Of a stretch of DNA of 64,000 nt, positions 19,863 through 25,939 are shown piece by piece. Location: assembly GCF_019797845.1 (NCBI RefSeq), contig NZ_CP081864.1, positions 1,054,001 through 1,118,000 of the forward strand, in the 5' to 3' direction. Within the stretch, counting starts at the first letter, position 1. The number at the start of each line of letters is the position of its first letter. Both the position numbers and the translations under genes were made by a program. Below the pieces are notes generated by a model that saw only the letters and a program-made list of their open reading frames with translations, was not told the DNA's origin and searched no databases. Origin of the DNA: Symbiopectobacterium purcellii (GTDB taxonomy: Bacteria > Pseudomonadota > Gammaproteobacteria > Enterobacterales > Enterobacteriaceae).

Positions 19863-21197
19863 TTATCCCCCGTTGCTGGGGGTAGCACGACGTTCTTTAT
19901 TCAGGCAGCCTTCGATGGTTTCCAACAGTTTACCCGTACCGCAGCAATTATCCTGATAACCCGCCACGTGTCGGCGATTAATCACACGATCGTGTGGGCA
20001 TCCCCCATGACAGAGGGAAAACCAACGACACTGACGCATTTTATTGAAGGCTTCCTGCTCCTCACGCTTTGCCGCCTGGTTATGTGCCGAATAGGCCAAT
20101 AGTTCTGCCAAATCCGTTTTCATCAACGAGCCGTAATGACTACCCGCATCGCCTACATATTTGTCGCACGGTGAAACGTCTCCATTGGGTTCGAGGGTAA
20201 TGACCTCCTGGGAACAGTTTTCTGACCAATAGCAGGCGGCCAGTCGAGTGCCAGGGTTGTTGATGGCTCGAATAAAATCGCTGAATTGTGGAATATGTAA
20301 AACAGCCTGATATTCATCCCACCAAAGCATGAATGCCCGATTTAGAAACGCGATAAACTCGGCATAAGTGATGTAATTTCCGTCGACCTTTCCGCCGGCA
20401 GGGATGCGATTATCAGGAACAATATTGAGAAATTCGATGTCATTGAGACCTATCTTATCGAAATAATCGAACATTTCTCGGAGGTCCGTTTGATAGACAT
20501 GGCGGTCAACAACGATGAGTGCCCCGTAGGGGATAGCATGTTGTTTAAGCCTTGTGCGTCCCTCAGCGACGCGTTGCGCTGTTCCTCGACCTCGGTAATC
20601 GACGCGACGTGAGTCATGCACGGCAGGAATGCCGTCCAGACTAATACCAACATGCATTCCGATCCCTTTAATAAAGGTTAACCATTCATCCGAGATATTT
20701 ACCGCGTTTGATTGCATTGAGTTGGTAATATGCTGTTCTGGCTGTTTGAATTGTTGCTGTAGCCAGAGTAGCTTTTGAAAAAAAACAGGTTTAAGTAGCG
20801 TCACCTCGCCACCGTGCCACACGAATTCAAAGCGTTTAATGTTGGGGATCGCTAATATTTTACGAATAGTTCGAACCAGGATATCAAACCGCATCGTTTG
20901 GTTTGGCCCCTCTGCCCAGGAGTGGCAATACGTGCAACGCAAGTTACACAGTCGAGTGGCTTTCAATACCACCACCAACTTTTTGGCTGCCACGGGTTGG
21001 GCGGTGACGGCTTGCTGTTGCTCGGCGTGGAAAATATGCAACTCTTCGGTGCTGAGTAAGGCGTGTGCTGGAATTTTGCCAATCAGATAGGCGCTCATCT
21101 GTCGGTAGTCTTGCGTAGCGATTTTTTCGAGATCGTTGGTGCTCAGTGCTGATGTTATATCGGTATCAATCTGAACAATGGGTATGATTTCATTCAT
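19863..21197 (-). CDS. darE: radical SAM/SPASM cyclophane-forming RiPP maturase, DarE-like
   Basis: The 444-residue enzyme has the radical SAM motif CNLRCTYC (Cys84, Cys88, Cys91) and a C-terminal SPASM domain with Cys322, Cys328, Cys344, Cys390, Cys396, Cys400 and Cys418/419 for two auxiliary [4Fe-4S] clusters. Enzymes of this type in darobactin and related pathways cross-link aromatic side chains in a precursor peptide: DarE makes both the Trp1-Trp3 ether and the Trp3-Lys5 C-C bond. Here it is the last gene of a five-gene operon whose first gene encodes a WNWSKGF peptide, which makes the DarE assignment strong. AAAGGAGAG precedes the ATG; 19 bases separate it from the ATPase gene. Confidence 0.88.
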   Translation of the reverse strand: MNEIIPIVQIDTDITSALSTNDLEKIATQDYRQMSAYLIGKIPAHALLSTEELHIFHAEQQQAVTAQPVAAKKLVVVLKATRLCNLRCTYCHSWAEGPNQTMRFDILVRTIRKILAIPNIKRFEFVWHGGEVTLLKPVFFQKLLWLQQQFKQPEQHITNSMQSNAVNISDEWLTFIKGIGMHVGISLDGIPAVHDSRRVDYRGRGTAQRVAEGRTRLKQHAIPYGALIVVDRHVYQTDLREMFDYFDKIGLNDIEFLNIVPDNRIPAGGKVDGNYITYAEFIAFLNRAFMLWWDEYQAVLHIPQFSDFIRAINNPGTRLAACYWSENCSQEVITLEPNGDVSPCDKYVGDAGSHYGSLMKTDLAELLAYSAHNQAAKREEQEAFNKMRQCRWFSLCHGGCPHDRVINRRHVAGYQDNCCGTGKLLETIEGCLNKERRATPSNGG

Positions 21198-21216
21198 GAT
21201 TTCTCTCCTTTCTATG

Positions 21217-21876
21217 TCATGTGAGATAACCGTCCTTCATCATTAAGTGTCGTTTGGCATACTCTGATGCCTCGGGGGAATGCGTAACCATGACAACGGT
21301 GGTACCGGCCTGATTAATGTCTTCCAGCTGCTGCAATACGGTTTTGCTGTTACTACTGTCTAGATTGCCCGTCGGTTCATCGGCCAAAATCAAGGTTGGC
21401 CGCGAAATCATGGCGCGAGCGATGGCAACCCGCTGCTGCTGACCGCCTGAAAGCTGGGCGGGGTAGTGAGCGCTTCTGCCGGATAATCCAAACTGTTCAA
21501 GGGGTTGTTTTACGCGAGCTTTTCGTTCAGATTGGGGGACATTGCGGTACTTGAGCGGGAGCTCGATATTTTCATAGACCGACATAAAATCGATCAGATT
21601 GAATGACTGAAATATGTAGCCGAGCAGTTGGCGACGCAGCGCTATTTTTTGGCTATGGCGCATTGGTGTAATGTCGTGCTGTGCCAGTTGCAATCGACCG
21701 GCATCAAGCGTTTCGAACATGCCGAGTACGTTGAGCAGCGTGGTTTTTCCCGAACCTGATGGCCCCATAATGGAGACAAATTCCCCCGCTGCTATCTGAA
21801 GGTTGATGTCACGCAGCGCCAGCGTTTTCACGGTTCGAGTGGTGTAAAATTTTTCTGCGCTTTCCAGTTGGATCAT
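21217..21876 (-). CDS. darD: ABC transporter ATP-binding protein (MacB/LolD type), DarD-like
   Basis: The 219-residue ATPase has Walker A GPSGSGKTT at about 38-46, Q-loop FQSFN, signature LSGGQQQRVAIARA, Walker B LILADEPTGNLDSSNSKTV and switch His in VTHSPEAS. This is the type that works with FtsX-like permeases, as encoded upstream. The frame is open to 21957, but ATG 21876 lies one base after the membrane-fusion gene's stop and starts the domain directly. It probably powers export of the mature peptide, as proposed for DarBCD in darobactin. Confidence 0.9.
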   Translation of the reverse strand: MIQLESAEKFYTTRTVKTLALRDINLQIAAGEFVSIMGPSGSGKTTLLNVLGMFETLDAGRLQLAQHDITPMRHSQKIALRRQLLGYIFQSFNLIDFMSVYENIELPLKYRNVPQSERKARVKQPLEQFGLSGRSAHYPAQLSGGQQQRVAIARAMISRPTLILADEPTGNLDSSNSKTVLQQLEDINQAGTTVVMVTHSPEASEYAKRHLMMKDGYLT

Positions 21877-21877
21877 C

Positions 21878-25522: not shown

Positions 25523-25651
25523 CGGCAACGGATTCCAGCGTAAAATTGATGTGTTAAGGTATTGGTGTATGGAAAATAATGCACGCTAAGTGAGCGTTAA
25601 AGCGTTATTCGGCCTGTTTATTATTTCAATTACTGAATCGTGTGTGCCCAG

Positions 25652-25682
25652 AAAAATGAATGAACCTCATCCGTGAGGTTCA
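25652..25682 (-). terminator. Hairpin (attenuator-like) between darA and darB
   Basis: On the minus strand, TGAACCTCA, loop CGGA and TGAGGTTCA form a perfect 9-bp stem (25661-25682), followed by TTCATTTTTC. It lies 59 bases after the precursor stop and upstream of the permease. It could end most transcripts after the precursor gene so that peptide is made in excess over its enzymes, a common RiPP layout. Confidence 0.6.
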
Positions 25683-25741
25683 CGTTATAACCCCAAGAGG
25701 GTATTCAACTATTTTACCGTAAAGCGTAAAGCATCAGCGTA

Positions 25742-25939
25742 TTATTGTGGTTTGTAGTTGAATCCTTTCGACCAATTCCACGCAAGTGCCAAGGGGGAAA
25801 TAGTTAATTGTAATATATCATTGACGTGTGTCGTCGAGATATCAGGGATTATTCCTTTTACACTTTTGCTTAACGCCATTAAATTTTCATGTAACTGTAT
25901 GGATGGCGTTATTGCTCTTTCATCAGCGATTGCATGCAT
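25742..25939 (-). CDS. darA: darobactin-type RiPP precursor peptide, core WNWSKGF
   Basis: The 65-residue peptide has a leader of 53 residues (containing VKGIIPDISTTHVNDILQLTIS), then W54-N-W56-S-K58-G-F60, then a short tail NYKPQ. Darobactin A is WNWSKSF, with bonds Trp1-Trp3 and Trp3-Lys5; all three reactive residues are present and only residue 6 is changed (Ser to Gly). The core is encoded at 25760-25780. The frame is open for 37 more codons upstream, but the ATG at 25939 has GGAG five bases before it and gives a normal precursor size. Gene order darA-darB-darC-darD-darE matches the darobactin operon. Mature darobactin inhibits BamA; the same target is inferred for this peptide, not shown. 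Confidence 0.88.
   Translation of the reverse strand: MHAIADERAITPSIQLHENLMALSKSVKGIIPDISTTHVNDILQLTISPLALAWNWSKGFNYKPQ

What the first reader, a model, noticed from the sequence alone, without database searches (positions are those of the whole stretch)
19863..25939. Complete darobactin-type RiPP operon in a probable Pectobacteriaceae chromosome
On the minus strand: a 65-residue precursor ending in a darobactin-like heptapeptide, an FtsX-type permease, an HlyD-type adaptor, a MacB-type ATPase and a radical SAM/SPASM enzyme, in that order with coupled spacing. This is the darABCDE order known from Photorhabdus. Darobactin blocks the outer-membrane insertase BamA. Darobactin clusters are, to my knowledge, described mainly from Photorhabdus, Yersinia, Vibrio and Pseudoalteromonas; a plant-associated enterobacterium would be a new setting. 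It sits between a tRNA-Gly pair and a third tRNA-Gly, in accessory DNA.
Basis: partly seen in the sequence, partly recalled or inferred. Interest (0 to 1): 0.95.

Follow-up and report, generated by a model that had tools for sequence, protein, structure and literature searches.

The report
Darobactin gene cluster with broken exporter
A bacterium that is probably an insect symbiont carries genes predicted to make a new version of darobactin, a peptide antibiotic that blocks outer-membrane assembly in Gram-negative bacteria, but one of its exporter genes is interrupted by a stop codon, and four of the five genomes of the genus compared here have damage in this cluster.

Summary
Window 25939..19863 (minus strand) holds darA-darB-darC-darD-darE in the darobactin order. 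DarE passes NCBI's curated DarE cut-off (748.6 against 650 bits); DarC and the downstream piece of DarB pass theirs; DarA and DarD fall short. The precursor core is WNWSKGF, a Gly-6 darobactin core that is not among the six in PMC8694152 and gave no hit in the held papers. "Complete" is wrong: darB has an in-frame TGA at its 47th codon. The genome belongs to Symbiopectobacterium, a genus of insect and nematode symbionts also cultured from potato. The cluster or its remains lie in 5 of 5 genomes of the genus, intact in 1 (potato isolate NZEC151), with a different DarB or DarE lesion in each of the other 4; WNWSKGF is present in 5 of 5. In the window all dar genes, even darB after the stop, still look constrained (dN/dS 0.09-0.16), so the break is recent, or bypassed, or the base call is wrong. 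Most likely the strain can still make the crosslinked peptide but exports it poorly. Product, export and activity are untested. A new member of a known family, in a new genus and in decay.

The parts
25742..25939 (-). darA, 65-aa precursor; leader, core WNWSKGF, 5-residue follower NYKPQ
   Evidence: found open in 5 of 5 genomes of the genus
25760..25780 (-). codons of the core heptapeptide WNWSKGF
25660..25683 (-). 10-bp hairpin between darA and darB; its central palindrome has 7 exact matches in this genome, so it is not specific to dar
25382..25522 (-). darB, first 46 codons, ended by an in-frame TGA at 25384..25382
   Evidence: (DarB model 1-41)
23141..25381 (-). darB, remaining 746 codons in the same frame (FtsX-type permease)
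   Evidence: NF038008 828.1 bits, cut-off 700, model 45-775; FtsX
21878..23134 (-). darC, periplasmic adaptor (HlyD type)
   Evidence: NF038010 495.7 bits, cut-off 450
21217..21876 (-). darD, export ATPase; start moved in from the longest ORF (21957) because the model begins at its residue 28
   Evidence: NF038007 359.5 bits, cut-off 375 (not reached)
19863..21197 (-). darE, radical SAM/SPASM enzyme with CNLRCTYC motif (C84, C88, C91) and further cysteines, invariant in a 26-sequence alignment
26238..28964 (-). ankyrin-repeat protein upstream of darA; among 60 relatives found in 4 genomes, all of this genus
18945..19823 (+). AraC-type regulator gene downstream of darE, convergent with it; among 60 relatives found in the 5 genomes of this genus only
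37615..37690 (+). tRNA-Gly on one side of the variable block; tRNA-Gly pair 15152-15382 on the other

Best explanation
This is a darABCDE-type (darobactin) gene cluster whose precursor carries the core WNWSKGF, which its DarE enzyme is predicted to crosslink into a bicyclic Gly-6 darobactin, and whose exporter gene darB is interrupted by an in-frame stop codon. Inferred mechanism: DarE joins Trp1-Trp3 by an ether and Trp3-Lys5 by a carbon-carbon bond, host peptidases trim leader and follower, and the heptapeptide would bind the lateral gate of BamA in other Gram-negative bacteria. DarBCD would normally carry it out of the cell. With darB split after codon 46 the permease probably cannot assemble, so the strain likely secretes little antibiotic even though darA and darE remain intact. 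The cluster appears to be an old resident of the genus that is now decaying by different lesions in different lineages.
For: Family. Core in 5 of 5 genomes of the genus (letters; gene) and in 8 of 8 database precursors found, one of them the window's own. Stop codon; absent at that place from 4 of 4 other genomes of the genus (G001's piece 1-212, G003 and G004 have no stop; G002's stops are TAG). Constraint: window against NZEC151 dN/dS 0.094-0.162 for darA, both darB pieces, darC, darD, darE; changes private to the window in darB after the stop 31 nonsynonymous: 74 synonymous, against 30:40 in NZEC151. Same neighbourhood within the genus. [quoted passage not shown]
Against: The stop codon rests on one assembled sequence; no DarB closer than 92% identity was found to check it. 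Low dN/dS after the stop would also fit a DarB that is still made (read-through, or restart at the TTG next to the stop). No product, export or activity data exist here. DarA and DarD fall under NCBI's naming cut-offs.
Confidence: 0.62

Rival explanations
1. The cluster is fully working: the TGA in darB is a sequencing error, or it is bypassed by read-through or by restart at the adjacent TTG.
For: The other four genes are open, and darB after the stop shows no sign of relaxed constraint; intact 793-aa DarB proteins exist in relatives.
Against: The genome is a single contig rated 100% complete, and decay of this very cluster is seen in 3 of the 4 other genomes of the genus. Restart would leave out the first hydrophobic stretch (judged by eye from the translation).
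Confidence: 0.22
2. A dead relic: the whole cluster is silent and nothing is made; darA and darE have simply not yet been hit.
For: Decay in relatives; the precursor is so short that its survival in 5 of 5 genomes is not telling.
Against: dN/dS 0.09-0.13 for darA, darC, darD, darE between window and NZEC151.
Confidence: 0.13
3. A different radical-SAM peptide system (XyeB, GrrM, DarW or dynobactin type) with a chance WNWSKGF match.
For: These systems share the radical SAM/SPASM architecture seen (general knowledge of the families).
Against: NCBIfam scores: DarE 748.6, DarW 521, DynA 194, GrrM 114, XyeB 62; tree; DarB and DarC models passed; WNWxKxF core in position.
Confidence: 0.02

Closest known systems
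Darobactin A cluster of Photorhabdus khanii (L026)
   Same: Gene order A-B-C-D-E, precursor with C-terminal WNWSKxF, DarE family
   Different: Identity only 55% DarE, 58% DarD, 29% DarC, 30% DarB; Gly instead of Ser at core position 6; other follower; the DarB stretch compared has no stop there
Dar clusters of Symbiopectobacterium NZEC151, Klebsiella sp. BIGb0407 and an uncultured Cedecea (L002, L005, L006)
   Same: Same core WNWSKGF and a follower that begins NY, same DarE clade at 100/99 support; DarE 92, 75 and 74% identical
   Different: All five genes open there; the tested neighbours are shared with NZEC151 but not with Klebsiella or Cedecea
Yersinia dar clusters (darobactins A, C, D, E; PMC8694152)
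   Same: Gene set and core pattern
   Different: DarE 64-66% identical, separate clade, cores W(N/S)WS(K/R)SF
Engineered darobactin 16 (WNWSKAF; PMC10107326, passages)
   Same: Small apolar residue at position 6, as also in the natural core WNWSKAF of L007
   Different: Ala rather than Gly; made by engineering

Membership tests
Daropeptide biosynthetic cluster (as described in PMC9055067) | DarE-family radical SAM/SPASM enzyme | tested here: met
   NF038005 748.6 bits, cut-off 650; tree
Daropeptide biosynthetic cluster (as described in PMC9055067) | Adjacent precursor with WNWxKxF-type core near the C-terminus | tested here: met
   WNWSKGF
Daropeptide biosynthetic cluster (as described in PMC9055067) | Ether and C-C crosslinked product | not testable with these tools
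   needs mass spectrometry and NMR
darABCDE operon of the Photorhabdus type | Gene order A-B-C-D-E on one strand, tight spacing from B to E | tested here: met
darABCDE operon of the Photorhabdus type | All five genes open | tested here: not met
   in-frame TGA in darB
NCBIfam NF038004 darobactin_RiPP (automatic naming rule) | Score of 45 bits or more | tested here: not met
   29.7 bits; 6 of 6 other precursors like it also fail at 28.6-34.8, while P. khanii 73.2 and Y. frederiksenii 81.8 pass
NCBIfam NF038007 ABC_ATP_DarD (automatic naming rule) | Score of 375 bits or more | tested here: not met
   359.5 bits, the best of all models; next best 219
BamA-blocking antibiotic | Binds BamA and kills Gram-negative bacteria | not testable with these tools
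   needs the compound
XyeB or GrrM families | Curated cut-off of those models (450, 310 bits) | tested here: not met
   62.2 and 113.9 bits

The most novel reading that the evidence does not exclude
A Gly-6 darobactin is an ancestral weapon of the genus Symbiopectobacterium, kept intact in a cultured potato isolate and lost several times over, each time by a different lesion (exporter in the window's strain, enzyme in another, most genes in two more), as lineages settle into insects and nematodes. The window catches the loss at its first step: the antibiotic can still be built but no longer leaves the cell.
Probability: 0.4. Interest if true: 0.6.

Novelty: new member of a known kind. Interest (0 to 1): 0.45.

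Why it matters
Darobactin is one of few natural leads against Gram-negative bacteria. A natural core with Gly at position 6, shared by most of one enzyme clade, is a ready test of how that position affects BamA binding; engineered work changed it to Ala, Arg and others (PMC10107326, passages). The genus also offers the same antibiotic cluster intact, freshly broken and ruined in near relatives, which makes the question whether symbionts shed their antibiotics directly testable.

Tried and rejected
Hairpin between darA and darB as a dar-specific attenuator: it looked convincing (10-bp stem; a stem of 9 or more pairs within 130 nt after 22 of 32 precursor copies, one locus counted twice, no shuffled control for stem length), but the palindrome has 7 exact matches in this genome, and the fold of those 130 nt is only modestly better than shuffled or not at all (z -1.6 for the window, -0.2 for NZEC151, 0.2 for G004). 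Rejected as dar-specific in this genus.

Target-site self-protection: BamA in 5 of 5 genomes of the genus keeps the E. coli residue at 8 of the 9 positions where PMC10135246 (passages) lists darobactin-resistance changes (429, 433, 434, 435, 443, 445, 705, 807); 394 is Tyr instead of Phe. Off that list, 432 differs in 5 of 5 and 430 in 4 of 5. No clear sign of target-site protection.

Plasmids: 1 of 72,556 plasmid records has a DarE relative at E 1e-60 or better, a conjugative Vibrio plasmid at 56% identity. It shows that such clusters can ride on plasmids, but gives no source for this one.

Survival of darA in 5 of 5 genomes as a sign of selection: not pursued, since a 65-codon gene would often escape by chance.

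XyeB or GrrM as the right family: rejected on scores.

Empty-site comparison with Pectobacterium: not done.

Full report
What is there. On the minus strand, 25939..19863, five genes follow each other: darA (65 aa), darB, darC (418 aa), darD (219 aa from the start that the DarD model supports) and darE (444 aa). Gaps are 219 nt between darA and darB and then 6, 1 and 19 nt. NCBIfam scores: DarE 748.6 bits (cut-off 650), DarC 495.7 (450), the downstream part of DarB 828.1 (700), DarD 359.5 (375, just under, but the best model by 140 bits), DarA 29.7 (45, under). The radical SAM motif CNLRCTYC and further cysteines are among the columns invariant over 26 aligned DarE sequences. Among solved structures 4 distinct sequences match DarE at E 1e-5 or better, all distant radical SAM enzymes, the best an anaerobic sulfatase maturase.

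The precursor. It ends in ...ISPLALA-WNWSKGF-NYKPQ. In named genomes a scan for DarE relatives gave 51 loci, of which 28 (L002-L029) are 55% or more identical and 23 are 33% or less. A pattern search found a daropeptide core in 26 of the 28 (not in L027 and L029, whose contigs are short): WNWSKGF in 5 (two Symbiopectobacterium, Klebsiella sp. BIGb0407, an uncultured Cedecea, an Enterobacterales MAG), WNWSKAF in 1, WNWSKSF in 18 and WNWSRSF in 2; three of the Photorhabdus loci have a second precursor with another core. A database search with the precursor gave 8 proteins, one of them the window's own; all 8 carry WNWSKGF. PMC8694152 (passages read) lists the cores of darobactins A-F; WNWSKGF is not among them. 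A search of the held papers for the string WNWSKGF found none, and for WNWSKAF found PMC10107326, where it is the engineered D16 (passages). The paper cited there for D1-D21 is not held, so an engineered WNWSKGF cannot be ruled out. The predicted bicyclic product has mass 935.3926, [M+H]+ 936.400; the same calculation gives 965.4032 for the darobactin A core, in line with the 966 Da of PMC10135246 (passages).

The lesion. darB opens at 25522 and runs 46 codons to a TGA at 25384..25382; the same frame then runs 746 codons to 23141. The two pieces match the DarB model at 1-41 and 45-775, and a whole-gene model match reports one TGA inside. Of 24 homologous proteins found, 22 are 788-842 aa in one piece and 2 are shorter. 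The finding's word "complete" is therefore wrong.

The organism. The closest named records are Candidatus Symbiopectobacterium NZEC151 and 'North America' (both 92% in DarE). The genus is known from insects and Howardula nematodes, and NZEC151 was cultured from potato (PMC10019282, whole text). The window lies in a single 4,942,431-base contig. The named collection may leave out the window's own record (note), and a published comparison uses Symbiopectobacterium purcellii SyEd1 (NZ_CP081864.1) as its large-genome reference (PMC12710357, passages), so I infer that the window is probably that genome; no call names it. S. purcellii was isolated from a leafhopper (title in that paper's reference list).

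The genus. Five genomes are held (G000-G004). State of the cluster: G003, all five genes open. G000 (window), one TGA in darB. G004, darA-darD open, darE lacking residues 1-120 and 193-264, hence without its radical SAM motif. G002, stops and frame changes in darB and darC, a frame change in darD, a stop in darE. G001, darB in several frames, a stop in darC, a frame change in darD, darE divided over two contigs away from their ends, and darA on a third contig beside pieces of the ankyrin gene. So 1 of 5 is intact and 4 of 5 are damaged, and the DarB or DarE lesions differ. The window's TGA is absent at that place from the other 4. darA is open with the core WNWSKGF in 5 of 5. Beyond these five, the database holds an intact 793-aa DarB from NZEC135 and a precursor from NZEC127. 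G001 may be the mealybug symbiont assembly PLON1 (a 481-aa DarB fragment of PLON1 is; 4.5 Mb as in PMC13345370, passages); that is an inference.

Age of the break. Between window and NZEC151 dN/dS is 0.105 for darA, 0.162 and 0.160 for the two darB pieces, 0.126 for darC, 0.095 for darD and 0.094 for darE, like the three neighbours (0.093-0.148). With G004 as third sequence, changes private to the window in darB after the stop are 31 nonsynonymous to 74 synonymous, against 30:40 in NZEC151 and 35:77 in G004. Nothing suggests that the window's darB has drifted free for long. This fits a recent break, a wrong base call, or a gene still made in some form; the calls do not separate them.

Origin. 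On a tree of 42 rows the window's DarE forms a clade with NZEC151 and a metagenome protein (100/99), inside an 8-row clade (100/99) with Klebsiella sp. BIGb0407, Cedecea (two identical rows), the Enterobacteriaceae MAG Lapin-020 and another metagenome protein. Yersinia and Photorhabdus/Xenorhabdus form clades of their own; a wider grouping with Sodalis sp. RH21 is weak (81/77), several outside rows are long-branched, and the outgroup did not come out as one side of a branch. The core is WNWSKGF in the clade's named members except Lapin-020, which has WNWSKSF. PMC9055067 sorts DarE into four clusters; I could not tell from what I read whether this clade is inside its cluster II. In this genus the cluster keeps the same neighbours (AraC and PEBP genes downstream in 5 of 5, ankyrin gene found in 4 of 5), while L004-L008 show none of the neighbours tested. 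A close AraC homologue was found in the 5 Symbiopectobacterium genomes alone of 60 relatives, and the ankyrin gene in 4 of 60. GC in 20001-26000 is 48-51%, against 52-57% in the adjoining 2-kb steps. This fits one acquisition before the genus split, but I did not look for the empty site. DarE is rare in the order: over the cut-off in 3 of 394 genomes sampled and in 5 of 60 relatives, own genome included in both.

How it would work. From PMC9055067 (abstract, passages and part of one section): DarE alone makes the bicyclic scaffold, tolerates changes in the core, and peptidases of the host cell can finish the product. PMC8694152 states that DarA and DarE suffice. Those steps are established for relatives and inferred here. 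Export by DarBCD is inferred from the families. Since darobactin acts on the outer-membrane protein BamA, product that stays in the cytoplasm should be without effect on neighbours. BamA in the genus shows no clear sign of target-site protection. I therefore expect a strain that can build the peptide but secretes little.

Known or new. It is a daropeptide cluster: known kind. New, as far as the searches go, are the genus (no held paper holds both 'Symbiopectobacterium' and 'darobactin'), the Gly-6 core and the series of intact to ruined copies. NCBI names already say DarB in Symbiopectobacterium NZEC135 and NZEC151, so the genes are labelled, though I found no discussion of them.

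Noticed in passing
window 17085-18080 (+), with a LysR regulator at 16069-17004 (-): A protein over NCBI's cut-off for the CAR family of subclass B3 metallo-beta-lactamases (547 against 500 bits) lies about 1.8 kb from darE. tblastn found no match to it in the fetched stretches of NZEC151, G002 and G004; in G001 it lies in two frames.
   Followed up: partly
window 25660-25683 and 6 other places in the genome: A palindrome GTGAACCTCA-n-TGAGGTTCA has 7 exact matches in the chromosome; in G001 a copy sits just after darA, whose darB lies on another contig.
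   Followed up: partly
window 15152-37690; L085 155-18434: A block between tRNA-Gly(gcc) genes holds dar in the window and in G004; its other content varies (the ankyrin gene is not found in G004, the beta-lactamase gene not in NZEC151's fetched stretch), as in a tRNA-bounded variable region. In the other genomes tRNA-Gly was seen on one side only within the fetched stretches.
   Followed up: partly
window 37898-43872: Next to the third tRNA-Gly lie an integrase-like ORF (37898-39250), a further recombinase-like ORF (40967-41842) and, at 34% GC, an ORF (42169-43872) that looks like an OLD-type ATP-dependent nuclease; names judged by eye from the translation.
   Followed up: no
L007: A record titled Martelella alba (an alphaproteobacterium) carries a dar cluster that groups with an unnamed metagenome protein, Sodalis sp. 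RH21 and an Enterobacterales MAG (95/93); the record is probably misnamed. Its core is WNWSKAF, the sequence of the engineered darobactin 16.
   Followed up: no
L028, Yersinia aldovae ATCC 35236: DarE falls into two tblastn pieces there, so decay of dar may not be confined to Symbiopectobacterium; not examined further.
   Followed up: no
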